Assembly (NCBI GenBank): GCA_028293625.1
Contig: JAQGOL010000030.1
Location: forward strand, 372,001-436,000
Length of the DNA: 64,000 nt
Reading direction: 5' to 3'
Origin: Chthoniobacteraceae bacterium
GTDB lineage: Bacteria > Verrucomicrobiota > Verrucomicrobiia > Chthoniobacterales > Chthoniobacteraceae
Shown here: positions 16,889-33,528 of the stretch, piece after piece
Numbering within the stretch: the first letter of the stretch is position 1
How the letters are laid out: each line of letters opens with the position of its first letter
Program-made: the position numbers and the translations under genes
Notes under the pieces: model-generated
Told to the model about the DNA's origin: nothing
Seen by the model: the letters and a program-made list of their open reading frames with translations, nothing else
The model's database searches: none

Positions 16889-18943
16889 TTAGCGAGTAGC
16901 GGTTGCAGCAGGGATATCGTCGCCGTCCGGGAAGAAAAACTCGACGTATCCGAGCATCATTTCCTCGGTGGTCTGCAAGCCCCAATGAACGATTTTGGTC
17001 GGATCAGGATTGGCGGGATTATTGGCGCTATTATCAAACCAACCGATCGCGCGCACCTTGCTGCCGGCGGGAATGGTCGGCGGTTCGGCGAAACGATAAG
17101 CGAGCTGCCAGTTGAAATCATACCGGGGCACATCGAGAAGGGTGCGCAGTTCGCCATTGGGCAGGACCGCTTCATACCGGAACGCTTTTCCGCGCACATG
17201 CATGTGCGGCATGAACCCGAGCACCTTGACATCGCGCGGCACTGGAATGAGCCCGGTTTCCGCATGATTTTCTTCACCGGCGGGAATAGTAAGCCGCGGT
17301 GCCGCGATACCCGCGACGTGAATCAAATGTTTGGGCGGCTCCTTAGCAAAAAGCAGTCCGATCCGCGATTGATCCTCGGTGGCGGTGCCGTTGGGCGTGT
17401 AATGGATCTGGAAAACAAGGCGTGAATTGGCGGGAAGTGGTTTGGCGAAACCATCGGGATAAATCACTGAACTATTGCCCGGGACATACGCGGCAAAAAA
17501 TCCGCCGATCGCATCGAGCCCGCGGCCGTTGCTCGCTTTGTCCTGAGCGAAAATAAGGATGTGATGGACCACTTCCCGAGCCGTCGGCTTGACCTCAAAT
17601 CCGCGAATCCAGCGATCCTCAGTCAACCCGGTGTCCACGGCGGTGATCTGGTAGGACATGGTGCCGGTGGCTTTGACGGCAATCGGTTTTGGAATCTGCA
17701 GGACGAGATCCGGCGCGCCGATCTGCCACTCAGCTGGCCACTGCCGGACAATGGGCGCATCTTTGGCGTCGCCGACCGGACGTCCGCCTTCCAGCCACGC
17801 GAGCAGGTCGGCCTTGTCGCGCTCCACGAGGGAACGATCATTCAGCCAGGGGGAATGCGCGGCGGGCGCTGCAAACCAGGGCGGCATCAATCCGCGGCCA
17901 ACCATCTTCTTGATCATGTTCGCTTTGGCGTTGACCTGCTCAACGGTTTCCAGCGCAAACGGCGCCACGCCCCCGGCGTGATGACACTCAAGGCAATTGC
18001 TTTGGAGCAAACGCGAGATGCGGTTGTGATAAGTCGGCGTGATCGCCGCAACCGCTTTGCTTACGTCCAGGAGGCAACCCGGCGCTTCAGTCGCGTTGAT
18101 CGCCGGCACGCCCCCCGCCAACACCGCATCAAGCGCCGCGCTCAGATAATTCCGCCGTGGCGCATCGAGCGAATAACCAAGCCCATACTGGTCGTCGATC
18201 GCGCCACGGTAAATCAGGGTCCGGGCCGCATCGACAACGAACGTGTCCGTGGAAGAAAGGGCGCCGAGGGTCGAAGCCAGCGCGCCGGTCGGATCAAGCG
18301 CGCAAGGAGCGGAAAAAGCGTGTTCTTTTAAGATCGCCTGAAGTTCAGCCGGCGTATCGGTCGCCGCGGGCGCAACGAGAAGGAACAGCACCCCTTTGGC
18401 GCGATATTCTTTTTCAAGTCTCGCAAGGGTGGGCACATACCGTTTGCTGACCGGGCAACTTGAACTGATCAGCGCGATTGCCAGCGGCTTGCCTGCCTGG
18501 AACTCACTCAACTGCCACTTTTTCCCTTCCAGATCCGTAAAGCTCACATCAGGCAACATCGCGCCAATCCCATGCTCGCCGGCCTTGAGCTGTTTCGGTT
18601 CCTGGCGGGGCGAGGAATCGTCGAGCACAAACGCGGGGGGCGGAACCGCGGTGGGCGCCGGCAGATCCGTTTGCGGATTGAGGAAAAACGCGAGCACCTT
18701 CTGCGCTTCGTCCAAGGTAACGGCGCCGTCGTTGTTTGAATCGAGCCGTTTGATCCACGGCTGCGTCCCGAGCTCATCTCCGCTCAATTTGCCATCGCCA
18801 TTTTTGTCCATTTGCTTGAACACGGCGGCGAGCCCTTCAGGAGTAAACGCCGGGGGCGCTCCGATTACCGGAGGGAGCTGCAAGAAATTGACAGCGGCAA
18901 TCATTCCAAGGAGGACCGGAGAGAAAGAAGATCGTGGGAACAT
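16889..18943 (-). CDS. Exported EF-hand / redoxin / haem-motif / copper monooxygenase-like fusion
   Basis: A 684-residue multidomain protein with a signal peptide (hydrophobic VLLGMIAAVNFL). Two EF-hands follow: D46-E57 (DKNGDGKLSGDE) and D68-E79 (DSNNDGAVTLDE). A redoxin (AhpC/TSA-like) domain spans about 130-290, with its Cys in SSSCPVSKRY. A haem motif CLECHH begins at C317. The C-terminal half resembles type II copper, ascorbate-dependent monooxygenases, with the His pair of VVHHILIF (about 457) and HMHVRGK (about 578). Such fusions are known only as uncharacterised proteins in PVC bacteria. The combination suggests a periplasmic, copper- and haem-dependent oxidation with thiol or peroxide handling, but the substrate is unknown. 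It is convergent with the sigma factor and divergent from tetR. Confidence 0.85.
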   Translation of the reverse strand: MFPRSSFSPVLLGMIAAVNFLQLPPVIGAPPAFTPEGLAAVFKQMDKNGDGKLSGDELGTQPWIKRLDSNNDGAVTLDEAQKVLAFFLNPQTDLPAPTAVPPPAFVLDDSSPRQEPKQLKAGEHGIGAMLPDVSFTDLEGKKWQLSEFQAGKPLAIALISSSCPVSKRYVPTLARLEKEYRAKGVLFLLVAPAATDTPAELQAILKEHAFSAPCALDPTGALASTLGALSSTDTFVVDAARTLIYRGAIDDQYGLGYSLDAPRRNYLSAALDAVLAGGVPAINATEAPGCLLDVSKAVAAITPTYHNRISRLLQSNCLECHHAGGVAPFALETVEQVNAKANMIKKMVGRGLMPPWFAAPAAHSPWLNDRSLVERDKADLLAWLEGGRPVGDAKDAPIVRQWPAEWQIGAPDLVLQIPKPIAVKATGTMSYQITAVDTGLTEDRWIRGFEVKPTAREVVHHILIFAQDKASNGRGLDAIGGFFAAYVPGNSSVIYPDGFAKPLPANSRLVFQIHYTPNGTATEDQSRIGLLFAKEPPKHLIHVAGIAAPRLTIPAGEENHAETGLIPVPRDVKVLGFMPHMHVRGKAFRYEAVLPNGELRTLLDVPRYDFNWQLAYRFAEPPTIPAGSKVRAIGWFDNSANNPANPDPTKIVHWGLQTTEEMMLGYVEFFFPDGDDIPAATATR

Positions 18944-23410: not shown

Positions 23411-23457
23411 GAGAGGCCCGGTTCTTCAGGGGTGGGGAACCGGGCTTCTCTTTTTTT
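23411..23457 (+). terminator. Rho-independent terminator of the TetR-linked operon
   Basis: GAGAGGCCCGGTTC (23411-23424) pairs with GAACCGGGCTTCTC (23437-23450) to give a 14-bp stem with one G-U pair and a 12-base loop, followed directly by seven T residues. This is the strongest hairpin terminator on the plus strand in the window and separates the MDR gene from the WXG100 operon. The rest of 23306-23613 has no gene; a weak TTGAAC/GATAAA pair at 23513-23539 may be a promoter for the next operon. Confidence 0.85.
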
Positions 23458-23613: not shown

Positions 23614-23886
23614 ATGGCTCAAGCGATCATGGACCCCGAAGAAGTGCGCCGCTTCGCAAAGGAGCTCAAACGCTTCAATGACGAAGTGCAGGTAAGAGCG
23701 GCGTCGCTTCAAGCCCGATTTGCGGCGTTGGGAAGCACTTGGCAGGATCAGGAACACGAGAAATTTGCCGAGGAATTTATTGTGACGATGAAGGCGCTAA
23801 AACGGTTCGTTGAAGTCTCTGAAAAACAGACGCCGTTTTTGTTAAAAAAAGCGCAACGCATCGACGATTACCTCGACCAGCGATAA
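23614..23886 (+). CDS. WXG100 (ESAT-6-like) small protein
   Basis: A 90-residue all-helical protein with no signal peptide. Two helices are joined by a turn with LGSTWQDQEHEKF (Trp near residue 43), the W-x-D variant of the WXG motif. The ATG at 23614 is preferred to one at 23569 because AAAGGAGA ends four bases before it, a good ribosome-binding site. WXG100 proteins are substrates or partners of type VII (ESX) secretion and are exported as helical-hairpin dimers by an FtsK/SpoIIIE ATPase, and such an ATPase is the fourth gene of this operon. The next gene starts 3 bases after its stop. Confidence 0.85.
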   Translation: MAQAIMDPEEVRRFAKELKRFNDEVQVRAASLQARFAALGSTWQDQEHEKFAEEFIVTMKALKRFVEVSEKQTPFLLKKAQRIDDYLDQR

Positions 23887-23889
23887 GCC

Positions 23890-24399
23890 ATGGCCGATCA
23901 GGCTAAAATCAGTTCCATCGACGCGCTTGAGGCGTTCCGGGCAAGTTTGATCATCTTCCTCACCAGGGCTCACGGCTCGGTCGATTCCGTTGGCGATGAA
24001 GTGCGGCGCACACGGGTCTGGCTTCAAAACGATCAACGGATCCATTGGGAAAATCAGATACGCCGCTGGCGCCGGCAGCTCGATCAAGCCACGCAGGATC
24101 TTATGAGTGCGCGGCTTTCGGGGCTTCGGGATTCGACCTCTGCCCAGGAGATGGCGGTGGTGAAATGTAAACGCGGCTTGGCTGAGTCGGAGGAAAAATT
24201 GCGCAGTGTCAAAATCTGGAACCGCGATTTTGATCATTATATGGGTCCATTATTAAAACGAATGGAAGGTCTTCGCCAGTTCCTTGACTACGACATGCCG
24301 AAAGCGCTCGCTTATCTGGTTCAAGCTCAGCACACACTCGATGCGTATGCAGAAACAAAACTTTCTGGCTCCGTAGCTCCGGCACCACCACCCGAATGA
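23890..24399 (+). CDS. Helical protein of the WXG100/FtsK operon, unknown
   Basis: A 169-residue, predicted all-helical, charged soluble protein without signal peptide, membrane helix or Cys pairs. It has paired motifs such as WENQIRRWRRQLDQATQDLM and a second helical half (VKCKRGLAESEEKLRSVK) suggestive of a long coiled hairpin, longer than a WXG100 but of similar character. I do not recognise a named family. Because it is sandwiched between two WXG-like genes and overlaps the next one by 4 bp (ATGA), it is probably a partner, chaperone or longer substrate of the same system. Confidence 0.75.
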   Translation: MADQAKISSIDALEAFRASLIIFLTRAHGSVDSVGDEVRRTRVWLQNDQRIHWENQIRRWRRQLDQATQDLMSARLSGLRDSTSAQEMAVVKCKRGLAESEEKLRSVKIWNRDFDHYMGPLLKRMEGLRQFLDYDMPKALAYLVQAQHTLDAYAETKLSGSVAPAPPPE

Positions 24400-24608
24400 G
24401 CAGCCGAGTCAACGGTTCCAATCTCTCGCAGGCGGCCAAGGAACTTTCCATTCAATGGGAACAAGCCCGCGCTTCCTGGCGTGACGTAAAGAGCCAGGAA
24501 TTTGAACAAAAATATCTCGACGTCCTTCCCCAGCATCTGGCGAGGACACTGGCGGTGATTGAAGAAATCGACGCCCTTTTAAGAAAGGTCAGACACGATT
24601 GTGAGTAG
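24396..24608 (+). CDS. Second WXG100-like small protein
   Basis: A 70-residue helical protein containing ASWRDVKSQEFEQKYL, the same Trp-x-Asp turn followed by a 'sxxFxxxyl' helix as the first gene of the operon, and a C-terminal helix LARTLAVIEEIDALLRKV. It is shorter than canonical WXG100 proteins (about 100). The start overlaps the previous stop by 4 bp and its own stop overlaps the GTG start of the ATPase gene by 8 bp, so expression of the two is coupled. It could form a heterodimer with the 90-residue protein, as EsxA/EsxB do (inference). Confidence 0.75.
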   Translation: MSSRVNGSNLSQAAKELSIQWEQARASWRDVKSQEFEQKYLDVLPQHLARTLAVIEEIDALLRKVRHDCE

Positions 24609-27600
24609 CGAAATTGATTTGCGAGTCAGCTGGAGCCTCGAACTCTTAACCCGGCTTAAACAAACCGTTACCGAGTTCTCAGCCAAAGAGGATCAACTTC
24701 AGCGCGAGCTGCGTACCCGGCGGCATGCAATCGAACGCCAATACCGTGAGACGCTCGAAAAACTTGGAAACTGGTCCTCGACAGAAGTCGCCCGAACAGA
24801 AGCCAATTTCCAGGAAGCTTCCGAGCGGTTTCGCATGCTTTTCGAGCAACGCCGATCACGGATCCAACGCGCCCAGGCCTCTACGATCCGCAATCTTCCC
24901 AAGCGCGCCAAGGCAGCCAAAGAGAAATGGATGGGTGACTTGCAAATGCGCAAGTTCCGCGCGGAGCGCAACCAGGCGAGCGGCTTGGAAGCGGTGGCCG
25001 AGGCGTTCACAAAATATAATACACGCCTCGCTGAGCGGCGTGAAACTTTTGTGCATCTTGAACAACAGGCGCGCAAAGCCTTTGGCGGCTATGGCGCATT
25101 CCGCCGAATGCTGCGCCGGGGAAGCAGTGAAGGACTCAATATTACCCCCACCAACCTTGATCACTGGCTTGAACAATTTCAAACCTCCCTTCAAAGCGCC
25201 GAGGCGCATCTGGCCGAATTTCGACGGCTCCCGCTGCCGCGAATTTTCCGATTTGTCCCGATTGCCGGCCTGATTTCAGTCCTCTTTCTGGCAACCGTCG
25301 TGCTGGCTTACCTGTTTGGAACCAGCTCGACACACGCCGGCGTCATCATCGGTGCCGGATCTCTGCTGTTGACCGCGGTGGTTCTTATTTTCCACGTCGG
25401 CAAACGCCAGGGCAAACCATTGGCAGCCGCAATTGCCGATTCACTCGCCGAAGCAAGCCGGCTTCACGATCCTTGCGTGGCGGCCGCTGAAGCCAAACGT
25501 GCAGCCAACCGGCAGCGGGTTGAGGACGAATATGAACGCGCGGACGGCGCTATCCGCCAGCAATGGGATCGCGCGCCGGAGGTGGAAGCCGACTACGAAA
25601 ATGCCCTGCGCAAAAAGATTGAGATCCAGGTGCCGCGGGCATTTGCCAGGAACGCGGCGATGCTCGTTCCAAAACTGGGCGTGCTGGAAACGGAGCGCAA
25701 TCCGGCGCTCAAGGCTCTGACCGGGGATGCGGAATCAAAAAAGGAACAGCTTGCGGCCGCTTATCAGGCCGACATCGCCGCCTTTCTGGCCGATGAGAAA
25801 GCCCGCTGGGAAGCGCTCGATGCGGACTGGAAACAGGAGATTCTGCCGCTCTTTCAAATCATCAATGCGATGAACGCGGAAACCGCGGCCCATTTCCCTG
25901 CGTGGAACGCGCCGTTGGTGGAAAATTGGGCGCCGGCCATGCGTTTTACGCCCGCCGCGAAGTTTGCCCAGCTCAACCTCGATTTGAGCGCCCTCGCACC
26001 GCCTAAAGAGACGCAAAACGCGCAGCCTCCGCGGCTGCAACTCCCTGGAGCAACGCAACTTTCCATCCCGCTGGCGCTCACCTTCCCCCAGGAGGGATCG
26101 CTTCTTTTTGAAACCGAAGAATCGAGCAACGCGCTCATCATTGACGCGGTTAACAACATCATCCTGCGGCTCCTGGCCACCACACCGCCTGGAAAACTAA
26201 GCTTTACGATCATCGATCCGGTCGGTCTCGGACAGAACTTTGCCGGGCTCATGCATCTTTCCGATTACGAAGAGAGCCTGATTAATCGCCGCATCTGGAC
26301 GCAGCGCGATCAGATCGACGACCGGCTGAGTGAACTCAACGAGCACATCGAAAAAGTCATTCAGATGTATCTCCGGAATGAATATGCCACCATTACCGAA
26401 TATAATGCACAGGCCGGGAGCGTTTCTGAAAAGTATCACTTTCTGGTCGTAGCCGATTTTCCCGCGAACTTCAGCGAAACGGCCGCGCGCCGGCTTCAGA
26501 GCATCGCCGTCAGCGGACCTCGCTGCGGTATTTTCACCCTTATCCATTGGGACAAACGGCTTCCGCTTCCGGACGGATTTTCACCTGATGAACTCCGCAA
26601 AAACAGCGTCTGCATCCGGCATGAGAACGGCCAATTTTTCCTGAATAAAAACCAGGCCGAGGGAGGTGCCGCGCTGGTATTTGACCTGCCACCCAATCCC
26701 GACCTGGCAATTGACCTGGTGCACAAAATTGGCAAAAGCAGCATCGACTCCAACCGGGTCGAAGTCCCTTTCGCTCAAATCGCGCCGATCGAGTCCGAGA
26801 TGTGGACGCTCGATACCACCAACGAACTGCGCATTGCCATGGGCCGCACCGGTGCCACCAAGCTCCAGTATCTCGCCATTGGAAAAGGAACCCGGCAGCA
26901 TGCGCTTTTTGCGGGAAAAACCGGTTCGGGCAAATCGACGCTTTTCCACGTTATCATCACCAACCTGGCGCTCGCATGCAGTCCCGATCAGGTGGAGTTT
27001 TATCTGATCGATTTCAAAAAAGGCGTCGAGTTCAAGTGTTACGCCTCAAAACGGCTGCCGCATGCCAGAGTGATTGCGATTGAAAGCGATCGCGAATTTG
27101 CACTGAGCGTCTTGCAGCGCGTGGATGAAGAATTAAAACGGCGCGGCGATCTGTTCCGCAAACTTGGTGTGCAGGACATCGCCGGTTACAAACGCGCCGG
27201 CGGAACCGAACCGATCCCCCGCTCTCTTCTTATCATCGACGAGTTCCAGGAGTTTTTCGTTGAAGACGACGCCATCGCCCAGAGCGCTTCCCTGCTTTTC
27301 GACCGGATTGTGCGACAGGGCCGAGCGTTCGGCATTCACGTTCTGCTCGGGTCGCAAAGCCTCGGCGGCGCCTACTCGCTGGCGCGTGCGACCATTGGTC
27401 AGATGGTCATCCGGGTCGCCCTTCAGTGCAACGAGGCCGATGCGTACCTGATCATGGATGACAGCAACTCGGCCGCCCGCCTGCTCTCACGCCCCGGGGA
27501 AGGGATTTACAATGACGGAGGCGGGGCGGTGGCCAACAACAGCCCGTTTCAGGTTGTTTGGTTGCCCGATGATGAACGCGATAAATGGCTGGATAAAGTC

Positions 27601-28494
27601 CGTCTTCTGGCCGGGCAGCATCCCGGGCACGATACGAGTCCCATCGTTTTTGAAGGCAATGCTCCCGCTGATATTCGCGAAAACGACAAGTTGCGTTTTG
27701 CATTGGCCACCCAGCCCGTGACCACGCCCCGTTCCAGCCGCGCATGGCTTGGCGCCCCAAACTCCATCAAGGGTCCGACAGAAGCGGTTTTCCAACGCCA
27801 AAGCGGCAATCACCTCCTCATTGTCGGCCAGCGCGATGAAGCCACCCTTAGCCTCCTTGCCATCTCGCTCCTCTCGCTGGCGACTCAATTTCCCGCAGGC
27901 ACGGCAAAATTTGTGTTGCTCACCAGCGCTGCGCCCGAATCCACCGAGTTGATTGAGCAAGTGCTGGCCGCCATTCCGCATGAAGTCACTGTCGCCCGGG
28001 GACAGGATATCAGCGGTGTCATGAGTGAGCTTTCCGCTGAAATGAAAGCACGCGTCTCCGGAGAGCGGCCCGCCGATGCGCCGCCGGTTTTTCTCGTTAT
28101 TCACGGGCTCCACAAGTTCAAGAAACTGCGGCACGAGGACGACTTCAGCTTCTCCTCAGGCGGCGAGGAGTCGAGTCCAAGCGCGGAATTCACGGCCTTG
28201 ATCAATGAAGGGAGCAGCCACGGGATGCATATCCTCGTCACCGTCGATACATTTAATAACGTGAACCGGTTTATGAGCCGTAAAGCGCTCAGCGAATTTG
28301 AAATGCGCGTCGTTTTCCAGATGAGCGCCAATGATTCAGCCAGCCTGATCGATTCCCCCAAAGCAAGCGGCCTTGGGCTCCATCGCGCATTGTTTTATAA
28401 TGAACACGACGGAACGCTCGAAACGTTCCGGCCTTATGCCACACCGCCCTCCGATTGGATGGCAGAGGCGGCGGCAAGTTTCGCGAAGGCCTGA
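24601..28494 (+). CDS. FtsK/SpoIIIE-family ATPase of type VII-like secretion (EccC/EssC-like)
   Basis: A 1297-residue membrane ATPase. Residues 1-200 form a long charged coiled coil. Two membrane helices span about 215-270. Three RecA-like domains follow: a degenerate first one (about 480-720), an intact one with Walker A GKTGSGKST (772-780) and Walker B LLIIDE (Asp880, Glu881), and a degenerate third one (about 1040-1270) where the P-loop reads GQRDEATLS. Three tandem domains after two N-terminal helices is the EccC/EssC design, and in those proteins too the copies differ in integrity. The EssC forkhead-associated domains are replaced here by the coiled coil. It starts with GTG. No EssA, EssB, EccB, EccD or mycosin gene lies nearby. 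Confidence 0.88.
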   Translation: MSSEIDLRVSWSLELLTRLKQTVTEFSAKEDQLQRELRTRRHAIERQYRETLEKLGNWSSTEVARTEANFQEASERFRMLFEQRRSRIQRAQASTIRNLPKRAKAAKEKWMGDLQMRKFRAERNQASGLEAVAEAFTKYNTRLAERRETFVHLEQQARKAFGGYGAFRRMLRRGSSEGLNITPTNLDHWLEQFQTSLQSAEAHLAEFRRLPLPRIFRFVPIAGLISVLFLATVVLAYLFGTSSTHAGVIIGAGSLLLTAVVLIFHVGKRQGKPLAAAIADSLAEASRLHDPCVAAAEAKRAANRQRVEDEYERADGAIRQQWDRAPEVEADYENALRKKIEIQVPRAFARNAAMLVPKLGVLETERNPALKALTGDAESKKEQLAAAYQADIAAFLADEKARWEALDADWKQEILPLFQIINAMNAETAAHFPAWNAPLVENWAPAMRFTPAAKFAQLNLDLSALAPPKETQNAQPPRLQLPGATQLSIPLALTFPQEGSLLFETEESSNALIIDAVNNIILRLLATTPPGKLSFTIIDPVGLGQNFAGLMHLSDYEESLINRRIWTQRDQIDDRLSELNEHIEKVIQMYLRNEYATITEYNAQAGSVSEKYHFLVVADFPANFSETAARRLQSIAVSGPRCGIFTLIHWDKRLPLPDGFSPDELRKNSVCIRHENGQFFLNKNQAEGGAALVFDLPPNPDLAIDLVHKIGKSSIDSNRVEVPFAQIAPIESEMWTLDTTNELRIAMGRTGATKLQYLAIGKGTRQHALFAGKTGSGKSTLFHVIITNLALACSPDQVEFYLIDFKKGVEFKCYASKRLPHARVIAIESDREFALSVLQRVDEELKRRGDLFRKLGVQDIAGYKRAGGTEPIPRSLLIIDEFQEFFVEDDAIAQSASLLFDRIVRQGRAFGIHVLLGSQSLGGAYSLARATIGQMVIRVALQCNEADAYLIMDDSNSAARLLSRPGEGIYNDGGGAVANNSPFQVVWLPDDERDKWLDKVRLLAGQHPGHDTSPIVFEGNAPADIRENDKLRFALATQPVTTPRSSRAWLGAPNSIKGPTEAVFQRQSGNHLLIVGQRDEATLSLLAISLLSLATQFPAGTAKFVLLTSAAPESTELIEQVLAAIPHEVTVARGQDISGVMSELSAEMKARVSGERPADAPPVFLVIHGLHKFKKLRHEDDFSFSSGGEESSPSAEFTALINEGSSHGMHILVTVDTFNNVNRFMSRKALSEFEMRVVFQMSANDSASLIDSPKASGLGLHRALFYNEHDGTLETFRPYATPPSDWMAEAAASFAKA

Positions 28495-30852: not shown

Positions 30853-33528
30853 ATGCGAACCACCCCACGATTGTTCCCCGTCGCGCTTTTTCTTGCCGCG
30901 GCCGCCGCCAGTGCCGCCCCGCAGCCGCCTCCTCCTGATTATCGGTTCAAAGTGGAAACCTTTGTTGAAGGTATTCCACAGCCGATGCAGCTCAAAATCG
31001 CTCCGGATGGACGGGTGTTCTTCAACGAATACGGCGGTAAACTCAAAATATACCATCCCGACACCAGACAACTTGTCGAAGCGGGCCAGCTCGAAGTCTG
31101 GACCCAGCAGGAGAACGGTTTTCTGGGGTTCGCGCTCGATCCGGAATTTGACGCCAACGGTTTTATTTACTGTCTCTATTCGCCACCGAACTTTCCCGGC
31201 CAGCACCTGAGCCGGTTCACCATGAAAGGCGACGTGCTCGATCCGGCGAGCGAGAAGCTGATCCTCAAGTATGAGGAACAGCGCAAGGAATGCTGCCACC
31301 ATGCCGGCTCGGTCGAATTCGGGCCGGATGGCTTGCTTTACTTTTCGGCCGGCGACAACACCCATCCTTTTGGCGACTCGGCCTCTTATGCGCCAATCGA
31401 TACACGGCCCGGACGCGAACCGTGGGACGCCCAGAAATCGGCCTCCAATACCAACAGCCTGAACGGCAAAATCCTTCGCATCCGCGTCAAGCCCGACGCG
31501 ACTTACGAGATCCCAGCCGGCAACCTGTTTCCTCCCGGCACACCCAAAACGCGCCCGGAAATCTTTGTGATGGGATGCCGCAACCCGTGGCGCATCGCGG
31601 TCGATCAAAAAACCGGCTACCTTTATTGGGGCGAAGTGGGACCCGACGCCAATGACGACGGCCCGAGGGGCTCGCGTGGCTACGACGAAATCAATCAGGC
31701 GCGCAAAGCGGGCAACTTCGGCTGGCCCTATTTCGTCGGCAAAAATTTCCCGTATGCCGCGTACGATTTTGTCGCCAAACAGATCGGTCCAAAATTTGAT
31801 CCGCTGCATCCGTTCAACGAAAGCCCAAACAACACCGGCTTGCGCGATCTGCCTCCCGCCCAGCCGGCCTTCATTTATTGGCCTTACGGCGAATCGCCTG
31901 AATTTCCGATGCTCGGCAAGGGCGGACGCACCGCGTGCGCGGGACCGGTTTTTCATTACGAAACAGCGTTTGAGAAGACCGGCGGATTTCCGGCTTATTT
32001 TGACAACTGCCTGCTATTTAGCGACTGGCAGCGGCCTTTTATCAAATGGGCGCGTCTTGATAAAGATTCCAACCTTGAAGGCATCGAGTCTTTCACCTCG
32101 GCGGTCGTCAATGCAAACGCCAAGGAACAGATGGATGCCGCCGCCGGCGCGATCGCGCAGGGAGCCACATTGGTAAAACGCGTCGTGAGCAGCGTTTTTG
32201 GAAAAGATGGCTGCCTTTATCTGCTCGATTACGGCGAAACCTGGGGCACAAACAAGGACGCAAAACTCCTCAGGATTTCTTATCAGCGCGGCAATCTCGC
32301 TCCGATCGCCAAAGTCGGCGCCACCCAAAGCAGAGGCCGCGAACCATTGACCGTGAACTTTTCAAGCAACGGATCCGCTGATCAGGAAGGAGCCGCCCTG
32401 AGCTTTGAATGGCGGCTACAACCCGGTGACAAAATCTTTTCCAAAGAACCGAATCCGCAGCTGACCATCAGCGAGCCCGGCAACTATCGCGCTGAATTGC
32501 GCGTAAGCGATCCGGAAGGCGCTACGGGAATTGCCAGCGTGGCATTGATCGTGGGCAATAGTGCGCCGGAAGTAAAATTTGAGCACCCGGCCAATGGCGA
32601 TTTTTTCACCCCAGGCAAACCGATCGCGTATCGGGTCAACGTGAATGATGCCGAGGATGGCGCTTCATTAAATAAACCTGACGAGTTCGGAATCCGCACA
32701 TTGGTGAGCGCGGCGGTCAAAGAGGCCGATGGCAAGGATTCAGCCAACGATCCGGGGCTTACCCTGATGAAGCAAAGCGATTGCTTTAACTGCCACGCTA
32801 TCGAGCAAAAGGTGGTCGGTCCGCCGCTGCTGGAAGTGGCCGCCAAATACCGGGACCAGCCCGCCGCCCTGGAAGCCAGCGTTCAGCGGGTTATCAACGG
32901 CTCGACCGGCGTCTGGGGCCAGGTCCCGATGCTCGCCCATCCGCAGCATACTGCCGATGAAATCCATATCATGCTCCGGTGGGTCTTTGGCCTGGAAAAA
33001 GGAAAAGGCGGACCGGCAATCGCGCGCGGGCTTTCGGGCGAAATCACGGCGCCCTCTTCCGATAAAGCCGCCAGCTTTGTCCTGGAAGCGACTTACACCG
33101 ATGCCGGACGCGCTCCGGCAGGCAGCCTCAGTGGAAAAGCGGCTGTCACCCTTCGGCCCAGGCGCATTGAAGCGATCAGCGGCGAGCTGCATGGGCCGGC
33201 TGTTTTGGGGCATAATCTCGGCGCTATTGACGACGGACACAGCGTGCGTCTGGCCGATATCAACCTTGCTGATGTCGGCAGCGTTACCGTGCGTGCTTCA
33301 TCGGGCAATGTCGGTGGAAAAATCGAGTTCCGAACCGGCGCGAAGGACGGGGCGCTTATCGGCTCCGTGGAGGTGCCAAACACCGGCGGCTGGGAAAAAT
33401 GGATCGAAGCCCGGAGCGAACCCGGCACAGTCATCCCACCGGGACGCGCCGACATTTTTCTCGTTTTTGTAAACCCGGGCAAGGGCGGGCTCATGAATCT
33501 TGATTGGGTGCAATTTAATCCGCGTTAA
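30853..33528 (+). CDS. Secreted PQQ-type sugar dehydrogenase / PKD / cytochrome c / CBM fusion
   Basis: An 891-residue exported protein with a signal peptide ending in ASAAPQ. The N-terminal beta-propeller (about 30-480) resembles the glucose/sorbosone dehydrogenase (GSDH) family, with LKIAPDGRVFFNEYGG and RNPWRIAVDQKTGYLYWGEVG. A PKD-like domain follows (about 495-580). A class I cytochrome domain has the haem motif CFNCHAIEQK (C644, C647, H648). The last about 140 residues resemble a CBM6-like carbohydrate-binding domain ending in GGLMNLDWVQF. It probably oxidises a bound sugar outside the cytoplasm and passes electrons to its own haem. It stands alone, 113 bases after the response regulator. 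Confidence 0.88.
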   Translation: MRTTPRLFPVALFLAAAAASAAPQPPPPDYRFKVETFVEGIPQPMQLKIAPDGRVFFNEYGGKLKIYHPDTRQLVEAGQLEVWTQQENGFLGFALDPEFDANGFIYCLYSPPNFPGQHLSRFTMKGDVLDPASEKLILKYEEQRKECCHHAGSVEFGPDGLLYFSAGDNTHPFGDSASYAPIDTRPGREPWDAQKSASNTNSLNGKILRIRVKPDATYEIPAGNLFPPGTPKTRPEIFVMGCRNPWRIAVDQKTGYLYWGEVGPDANDDGPRGSRGYDEINQARKAGNFGWPYFVGKNFPYAAYDFVAKQIGPKFDPLHPFNESPNNTGLRDLPPAQPAFIYWPYGESPEFPMLGKGGRTACAGPVFHYETAFEKTGGFPAYFDNCLLFSDWQRPFIKWARLDKDSNLEGIESFTSAVVNANAKEQMDAAAGAIAQGATLVKRVVSSVFGKDGCLYLLDYGETWGTNKDAKLLRISYQRGNLAPIAKVGATQSRGREPLTVNFSSNGSADQEGAALSFEWRLQPGDKIFSKEPNPQLTISEPGNYRAELRVSDPEGATGIASVALIVGNSAPEVKFEHPANGDFFTPGKPIAYRVNVNDAEDGASLNKPDEFGIRTLVSAAVKEADGKDSANDPGLTLMKQSDCFNCHAIEQKVVGPPLLEVAAKYRDQPAALEASVQRVINGSTGVWGQVPMLAHPQHTADEIHIMLRWVFGLEKGKGGPAIARGLSGEITAPSSDKAASFVLEATYTDAGRAPAGSLSGKAAVTLRPRRIEAISGELHGPAVLGHNLGAIDDGHSVRLADINLADVGSVTVRASSGNVGGKIEFRTGAKDGALIGSVEVPNTGGWEKWIEARSEPGTVIPPGRADIFLVFVNPGKGGLMNLDWVQFNPR

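What the first reader, a model, noticed from the sequence alone, without database searches (positions are those of the whole stretch)
23614..28494. Compact four-gene WXG100 / FtsK-type operon: a candidate minimal type VII-like secretion system in a diderm bacterium
Two WXG-like small proteins (W-Q-D and W-R-D turns), a 169-residue helical protein and an EccC/EssC-like ATPase (two membrane helices, three RecA-like domains, only the middle one with an intact Walker A) sit in one operon with gaps of 3 bases or overlaps of 4 and 8 bases. The usual EssA/EssB, EccB/EccD and protease genes are absent, and the FHA domains of EssC are replaced by a coiled coil. WXG100 genes in PVC bacteria have been noted before, but this arrangement with a coiled-coil ATPase and a second WXG-like partner is not one I know to be characterised. 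How it would cross an outer membrane is open.
Basis: partly seen in the sequence, partly recalled or inferred. Interest (0 to 1): 0.8.

Follow-up and report, generated by a model that had tools for sequence, protein, structure and literature searches.

The report
Four-gene WXG100/EssC-type operon, probable exporter
A compact set of four genes, kept together in many Verrucomicrobia, encodes a membrane-anchored motor and three small helical partners related to the type VII secretion systems of Gram-positive bacteria, and probably exports those partners in a bacterium that has two membranes.

Summary
Four real genes lie at 23614-28494: a WXG100 protein (g1), a 169-residue helical hairpin (g2), a 70-residue WXG100-like protein (g3) and a 1297-residue ATPase (g4). 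The order is conserved in 76 of 80 related loci. Two of the other four are cut by contig ends; in the remaining two genomes g4 lies elsewhere. The ATPase motor groups with EccC, not FtsK, and matches EccC domain D1 best. YukD and YukC were not found in this genome; EccB could not be judged. "Type VII-like" is supported as kinship; secretion is not shown.

In the tree made here the closest relatives are the coiled-coil EssC-like ATPase/WXG100 cassettes of Type III-A CoCoNuT and TerD-linked loci. One CoCoNuT-like locus sits in this same genome. The CoCoNuT paper (PMC11090510, section 10 read) cites earlier work for stand-alone versions, so the kind is in print. What I did not find in print is the fixed, membrane-anchored Verrucomicrobiota form, with g2 as a bare hairpin. 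Best guess: an inner-membrane motor exporting its own WXG100-type partners. Main rival: a cytosolic conflict module. Outer-membrane passage is unexplained.

The parts
23411..23450 (+). terminator-like hairpin (18 pairs) followed by a T run, upstream of the operon
   Evidence: the region as a whole has no excess of terminator-like sites over shuffles (9 found, mean 8.8), but this is by far the longest stem of the nine
23614..23886 (+). g1: 90-aa WXG100 protein; the turn is W-Q-D, not W-x-G; AGGAG just upstream
   Evidence: Pfam WXG100 35.3 bits; 85% mean column identity over 19 loci; sequence
23890..24399 (+). g2: 169-aa helical hairpin (helices 2-77 and 80-160) with a Pro/Ala-rich tail; no Pfam or NCBIfam family above a cut-off
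   Evidence: AlphaFold2 model pLDDT 90.9
24396..24608 (+). g3: 70-aa WXG100-like protein with an invariant W28-x-D30
24601..28494 (+). g4: 1297-aa FtsK/EccC-type ATPase (GTG start)
25252..25308 (+). g4 hydrophobic segment 1 (residues 218-236)
   Evidence: hydropathy
25336..25392 (+). g4 hydrophobic segment 2 (residues 246-264)
   Evidence: hydropathy
25918..26748 (+). g4 domain A (residues 440-716): degenerate ATPase-like domain, in the position of the EccC DUF domain
   Evidence: model; no sequence match to any EccC domain; structural match to the EccC5 stalk/DUF chain (Z 14.7, rmsd 6.5 over 262 residues), but the EccC5 DUF crystal matched domain C instead
26749..27615 (+). g4 domain B (residues 717-1005): active motor, closest to EccC D1
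   Evidence: hhalign E 4.6e-30 to EccC D1, against 1.6e-15 (D2) and 7.7e-9 (D3)
26914..26937 (+). Walker A GKTGSGKS (residues 772-779), invariant in 56 of 56 rows
27226..27243 (+). Walker B LLIIDE (D880 and E881 invariant in 56 of 56 rows)
27616..28491 (+). g4 domain C (residues 1006-1297): degenerate ATPase domain resembling EccC D2/D3
   Evidence: hhalign E about 5e-6 to 7e-6 to both D2 and D3

Best explanation
The operon encodes a stand-alone, membrane-anchored member of the coiled-coil EssC-like ATPase/WXG100 cassette family, a side branch of the type VII (EccC/EssC) lineage. Inferred mechanism: g4 sits in the inner membrane by its two helices, probably as a hexamer, and hydrolyses ATP only in its D1-type central domain. 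The small helical proteins form dimers or a bundle (g1 with itself or with g3; the g2 hairpin with g3, comparable to an LXG/Lap or PPE/PE pair), dock on the degenerate C-terminal ATPase domain, and are threaded or gated across the inner membrane. Since no other g1-like or g2-like protein was found in the genomes searched, apart from the CoCoNuT WXG100, the only substrates visible are g1 to g3 themselves. Shown by sequence: the genes, conserved order, ATPase lineage, two hydrophobic segments, a single canonical motor, and WXG100 kinship of g1 and (through a bridge) g3. Inferred: assembly, docking, export, and everything beyond the inner membrane.
For: EccC side of the split from FtsK, 100/100. 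Top Foldseek hit EccC 4nh0 (E 6e-28), then EssC, with FtsK at 1e-11. NCBIfam EccCa 113.6 bits against FtsK 30.2, all below the curated cut-offs. The genome has its own separate FtsK. Two hydrophobic segments in g4, none in the two CoCoNuT-type ATPases checked. g1 Pfam WXG100; the g3 profile, and weakly the g2 profile, align with a WXG100 above shuffles. Same order in 76 of 80 loci; nearest start codons give a 4-base g2-g3 overlap in 56 of 79 and an 8-base g3-g4 overlap in 44 of 76. Where g4 is not adjacent (L127, L128, G179) the genome encodes it elsewhere. Of 387 genomes of the phylum, WXG100 passes its cut-off in 21, and 17 of those also have g2. One g1 and one g2 per genome in 10 of 10 genomes, plus the CoCoNuT WXG100 in the window's genome.
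Against: No secretion data exist. YxxxD/E is found in the last 30 residues of 0 of 82 g1 proteins. The membrane partners of T7SSb were not found (YukC, YukD; EccB inconclusive). The CoCoNuT-type relatives lack membrane helices, so the cassette can evidently exist without membrane anchoring. Of the seven g4 proteins checked by hydropathy, four give two clear segments, L156 gives three calls (two overlapping), L149 two overlapping weak ones and L099 only one. g1 is unusually conserved for a secreted effector.
Confidence: 0.5

Rival explanations
1. A cytosol-facing conflict (anti-phage or stress) module: g4 is an ATP-driven remodeller or nucleic-acid pump held at the membrane, and the WXG100-type proteins are adaptors that never leave the cell.
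For: The relatives nearest in the tree lie in defence or stress loci: the CoCoNuT-like locus of this genome (L037: VWA, VWA, WXG100, ATPase, PP2C, kinase), a Caballeronia plasmid with VWA, WXG100, FtsK, CARF, VWA, PP2C and kinase, and a Rhodococcus plasmid beside TerD genes. Models of the defence ATPases SspH, Mad8 (over 2-264 of 314 positions) and HerA also match the motor domain.
Against: g1, g2 and g3 have no PADLOC match, and g4 matches ATPase models only. In the Verrucomicrobiota loci no Pfam family occurs in more than 6 of 145 flanking ORFs scanned, and VWA, PP2C and kinase are not among the 25 commonest families. Two hydrophobic segments in g4.
Confidence: 0.27
2. A true secretion system whose toxins or enzymes are encoded elsewhere in the genome and are recognised through g2/g3 as carriers.
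For: In a Rhodococcus cousin the g2-like hairpin carries an extra C-terminal domain (L181 314-aa protein; hhalign 31.4 against at most 18.4 in 60 shuffles). CoCoNuT relatives have a coiled coil fused to a nuclease-like domain in the second gene (PMC11090510).
Against: No second g2-like protein with E below 0.1 in 10 of 10 genomes, and no second g1-like protein with E below 0.1 except in the CoCoNuT-like locus of the window's genome. No flanking gene cluster recurs in more than 11 of 80 loci.
Confidence: 0.15
3. A DNA translocase of the FtsK kind.
For: Shared FtsK/SpoIIIE Pfam domain; the structural aligner gives an FtsK motor domain the top Z (26.5), EccC following at 25.5.
Against: The tree places g4 with EccC (100/100); Foldseek and profile scores favour EccC; the genome has a separate FtsK; the WXG100-type partners are conserved.
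Confidence: 0.05

Closest known systems
[quoted passage not shown]
   Same: EssC-like ATPase with one active central domain and a long N-terminal helical region, a WXG100 protein, a second small WXG100-like protein and a coiled-coil protein; in one group with g4 in the motor tree (100/99, order within the group not resolved)
   Different: There: no membrane helices, a nuclease-like domain fused to the coiled coil, an HU-mimic-like gene, and flanking VWA/TerY genes. Here: two hydrophobic segments in g4, g2 a bare hairpin, no such flanks
TerD-linked WXG/FtsK operon of a Rhodococcus plasmid (L181)
   Same: ATPase of 1322 aa with one canonical Walker A, a 73-aa protein with W-R-D, an 87-aa protein with W-K-D that matches the g1 profile, and a g2-like hairpin
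   Different: Gene order reversed, g2-like protein has an extra C-terminal domain, TerD neighbours, no membrane pair by hydropathy; the 73-aa protein does not match the g3 profile above noise
T7SSa/T7SSb (EccC/EssC with EsxA)
   Same: FtsK-type ATPase whose D1-like motor is intact, WXG100 partner, membrane segments in the ATPase
   Different: One ATPase domain fewer; no FHA domain matched; no YukC or YukD found in the window's genome; WxD instead of WxG; no YxxxD/E
T7SSc-T7SSj (PMC11217815)
   Same: Divergent EssC-like ATPase plus WXG100 in gene clusters
   Different: That paper covers Gram-positive bacteria, and those clusters carry further components, in all but T7SSd a YukD-like protein; none of its sequences was compared here

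Membership tests
Type VII secretion system (sensu EccC/EssC + EsxA) | EccC/EssC-lineage ATPase rather than FtsK | tested here: met
   (100/100 split); NCBIfam equivalog cut-offs not reached; no Bacillota EssC in the tree
Type VII secretion system (sensu EccC/EssC + EsxA) | WXG100 partner encoded with the ATPase | tested here: met
   g1 above the Pfam cut-off; the TIGR03930 ESAT-6 cut-off is not reached (29 against 44.85 bits)
Type VII secretion system (sensu EccC/EssC + EsxA) | ATPase anchored by transmembrane helices | tested here: met
   two hydrophobic segments, by hydropathy only; not clear in every orthologue
Type VII secretion system (sensu EccC/EssC + EsxA) | YukD/EsaB-type ubiquitin-like component | tested here: not met
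   0 hits in own genome, B. subtilis control rings; PMC11217815 reports none for T7SSd either
T7SSb | EssB/YukC | tested here: not met
   0 hits in own genome, B. subtilis control rings
T7SSa | EccB | tested here: inconclusive
   no hit, but no control rang
Type VII secretion system (sensu EccC/EssC + EsxA) | four ATPase-like domains (DUF, D1-D3) | tested here: not met
   three alpha/beta domains in the model; four domains in EccC/EssC according to PMC11217815
Type VII secretion system (sensu EccC/EssC + EsxA) | ATPase-dependent export of the WXG100 protein | not testable with these tools
   needs fractionation or secretome data
CoCoNuT Type III-A EssC extension | flanking VWA/TerY, PP2C, kinase and core Cnu genes | tested here: not met
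   ten window neighbours scanned are other families; not among the common families of 145 flanking ORFs
CoCoNuT Type III-A EssC extension | coiled coil fused to a nuclease-like domain | tested here: not met
   g2 ends after the hairpin; g2 ORF length 155-236 aa over 81 rows
FtsK DNA translocase | clusters with FtsK motor domains | tested here: not met

The most novel reading that the evidence does not exclude
A four-protein type VII exporter in a diderm: g4 drives g1 to g3 across the inner membrane, and the WXG100-type proteins themselves assemble the path through the periplasm and outer membrane, with no dedicated envelope components. The CoCoNuT-linked, membrane-free versions would then be this exporter re-used inside the cell for defence.
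Probability: 0.13. Interest if true: 0.85.

Novelty: new variant of a known kind. Interest (0 to 1): 0.55.

Why it matters
It would be one of the smallest gene sets built round an EccC-type motor, in bacteria with an outer membrane, where type VII secretion is not established as far as I know. Because the same kind of cassette exists with membrane helices (here) and without them (CoCoNuT loci), comparing the two would show directly whether WXG100/EssC pairs do anything other than secretion. The system occurs in records titled as cultured bacteria (Chthoniobacter flavus Ellin428, Verrucomicrobium sp. BvORR106 and BvORR034), so it can be tested.

Tried and rejected
Looking for a toxin or immunity gene among the neighbours: I clustered ORFs of the window and 20 fetched loci, 18 of them orthologous, and 561 rough flanking ORFs of the 80 named loci (upstream ORFs in 77 loci, downstream in 63). 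No flanking cluster recurs in more than 11 of 80 loci; the largest are from the Roseibacillus/Akkermansiaceae group or common superfamilies at varying places. A Pfam scan of 145 of 229 eligible nearest flanking ORFs gave at most 6 members per family, mostly metabolic (only the 25 commonest of 120 families are shown). The ORF calls are greedy and rough.

Looking for further substrates: 10 genomes searched with the g2 and g1 profiles gave one clear g1 and one clear g2 each, plus the CoCoNuT WXG100 in G000; the other matches had E of 0.127 or more.

Fold comparison of g2 against the PDB gave only generic helical bundles, none with E at or below 0.001. g3 against g1 directly by hhalign was weak (probability 4.8) and g2 against g1 weaker still; the link of g3 to WXG100 rests on the CoCoNuT WXG100 as a bridge. 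The nulls are residue shuffles, which also destroy helical periodicity, so they are lenient. The alignment of g2 with a WXG100 (26.8 against at most 16.2) is only a hint.

Structural aligner: FtsK (Z 26.5) and EccC (25.5) motor domains come out nearly level, so the tree and profile scores carry the placement. Whether domain A is the EccC DUF domain is suggested mainly by position; the crystal of the EccC5 DUF domain matched domain C. The 698-aa ATPase of G013:C41 is not in the tree because my motif search missed its P-loop; the Mad8 and SspH ATPases were not in it either. EccC D2 and D3 are long branches there. No Bacillota EssC was in the tree; the Paenibacillus row fell with FtsK.

Family tree of g4 by taxon: labels are submitter titles and many are unreliable, so no claim on transfer is made.

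Papers: PMC11090510 passages and section 10; PMC11217815 passages and Discussion; PMC3935865, PMC7159879 and PMC10853773 passages only; of all others only search listings. Anantharaman 2012 is not held and is known here only through PMC11090510. Searches whose listed titles and abstracts showed no description of this operon in Verrucomicrobia; the lists were capped. Sutcliffe's 2011 note on WXG100 in further phyla is recalled, not seen. The LXG/Lap and PPE/PE comparison is recalled, apart from the abstract of PMC9600955 in a listing.


Full report
What is there. Four genes on the + strand at 23614-28494, spaced by a 3-base gap and overlaps of 4 and 8 bases. A terminator-like hairpin of 18 pairs at 23411-23450 separates them from the upstream gene, and a convergent polysaccharide deacetylase gene ends just downstream. 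Upstream neighbours are a TetR regulator, a trypsin/PDZ protein, a thioredoxin, a DUF5069 protein, a HhH-GPD DNA glycosylase and an alcohol dehydrogenase-type protein; none looks like part of the system.

The proteins. g1 (90 aa) passes the Pfam WXG100 cut-off, although not NCBIfam's ESAT-6 cut-off. Its turn is W-x-D in 82 of 82 rows, a W-x-G occurs in 2, and the YxxxD/E motif known from type VII substrates (recalled) occurs in the last 30 residues of 0 of 82. It is the most conserved of the three small proteins (85% mean column identity over 19 loci; g3 60%; g2 52%). g3 (70 aa) has W-x-D in 81 of 81 rows, and its profile aligns with the WXG100 protein of this genome's CoCoNuT-like locus with a score of 41.4, against at most 20.2 for 60 shuffles; against the g1 profile itself it is weak. 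g2 (169 aa) matches no family above a cut-off and is modelled as one long helical hairpin, pLDDT 90.9. Fold search gave only generic helical bundles, none at E 0.001 or better.

The ATPase. g4 has one canonical Walker A, which is invariant with Walker B D880-E881 over 56 non-redundant orthologues. Hydropathy gives two membrane segments. The motor domain separates from eight FtsK motors with 100/100 support, stands next to the EccC domains (a group of their own, 93/87), and joins two CoCoNuT-type ATPases and one TerD-linked ATPase in one group (100/99), within which the order is not resolved. Foldseek ranks EccC and EssC above FtsK; by the structural aligner FtsK (Z 26.5) and EccC (25.5) are nearly level. 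By profile comparison with three EccC proteins the central domain is D1-like (score 204, against 109 for D2 and 65 for D3), the last domain is D2/D3-like (47 each), and the first has no sequence match. So the active centre is most simply the D1 motor of EccC, with one of the other ATPase domains missing. This differs from the labelling in PMC11090510, which calls the active domain of the CoCoNuT homologues D2.

Conservation. In relatives, 25 of 97 genomes (own included) have a g4 match with E below 1e-150. I fetched 18 of the 24 others with flanks, and all 18 have g1-g2-g3-g4 in order. A scan of GTDB genomes with the g1 alignment found 250 relatives among 391 pattern matches, of which the best 80 were kept: 76 of 80 have all four genes in order and on one strand; two of the other four stop at a contig end (L134, L146); two have g1-g2-g3 without g4 beside them (L127, L128), and both genomes encode g4 elsewhere. 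G179 is like these two. In one of the 76 (L150) g4 is split into two frames. Titles of the 80 name Verrucomicrobiota or Kiritimatiellia groups except one 'Bacteroidetes' bin (L112) and one plain 'bacterium' (L152); L112 nests among Verrucomicrobiota in the g4 tree. In an even draw of 387 genomes of the phylum the system marker g2 is found in 17 and WXG100 above its cut-off in 21, including all 17. So most genomes of this phylum with a WXG100 protein have this system, and the system is patchy.

What travels with it. No flanking gene cluster recurs in more than 11 of 80 loci, and no Pfam family occurs in more than 6 of 145 nearest flanking ORFs scanned, out of 229 eligible; they look like ordinary metabolic and regulatory genes, not a defence island. 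Ten genomes each have one clear g1 and one clear g2, with no further match below E 0.1 except the CoCoNuT WXG100 in the window's genome. YukD and YukC were not found in the window's genome while the B. subtilis control rings. EccB gave nothing anywhere, so it is not settled. The genome has three Omp85 matches, as expected of a bacterium with an outer membrane.

The wider family. The same genome carries a second WXG100/ATPase cassette (G000:C40): two VWA genes, WXG100, a 445-aa coiled-coil protein, a 120-aa protein, a 75-aa helical protein, a 1106-aa ATPase without membrane segments, then a VWA-like gene, PP2C, a kinase and a large helicase-like protein (the coiled-coil, last VWA and helicase labels are by eye). 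This is close to the layout that PMC11090510 (section 10) describes as the EssC-type extension of Type III-A CoCoNuTs; a Caballeronia plasmid shows it too. That paper cites Anantharaman and others (2012) for stand-alone copies of the WXG100/FtsK operon. A Rhodococcus plasmid has a TerD-linked cousin whose 314-aa protein begins with a g2-like hairpin (31.4 against at most 18.4 in 60 shuffles) and continues with another domain. The Verrucomicrobiota g2 may therefore be the carrier part of such proteins without cargo.

How it most likely works. A membrane-anchored EccC-type motor moves its own small WXG100-type partners, with g2 and g3 as a carrier/chaperone pair. Lineage, hydrophobic segments, constant company and overlapping genes are shown by sequence; assembly, docking and export are inferred. 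The main rival is an intracellular role in conflict or stress, as in the CoCoNuT and Ter loci, where the three relatives checked show no membrane pair. Nothing here explains passage across the outer membrane.

Verdict. It is a new variant of a known kind, of moderate interest, and testable in cultured strains.

Noticed in passing
L037 and L154 (G000:C40:1-34600): The window's genome carries what looks like a Type III-A CoCoNuT locus with the EssC-type extension, on another contig.
   Followed up: partly
L162 10388-16976 (G013:C41): A third kind of cassette: a 698-aa ATPase with only the active and the last domain of g4, a 92-aa and an 87-aa WXG100-like protein, then 543-, 147- and 573-aa proteins without Pfam families above a cut-off.
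   Followed up: partly
L188 6996-11798 (Deinococcus actinosclerus plasmid): FtsK-annotated 947-aa protein followed by an 88-aa protein with a W-Q-D turn that matches the g1 profile, and further small helical proteins.
   Followed up: partly
L187 1752-9969 (Rhodococcus pseudokoreensis plasmid): Hsp70, TPR and GrpE genes next to an FtsK-like ATPase and a 272-aa protein that by eye has a helical start and a different C-terminal domain; it may be an effector with a partner gene.
   Followed up: no
L181 10603-11547 (Rhodococcus plasmid): The g2-like hairpin is fused to a C-terminal domain that resembles ParB-like domains by eye only; Pfam gives nothing.
   Followed up: partly
L150 7009-10899: g4 is split into two reading frames in this bin; a frameshift or an assembly error.
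   Followed up: no
window 30853-33528: Large protein with a glucose/sorbosone dehydrogenase domain, PKD domain and CBM6.
   Followed up: no
window 16889-18943: 684-aa protein combining EF-hands with an AhpC/redoxin-type domain.
   Followed up: no
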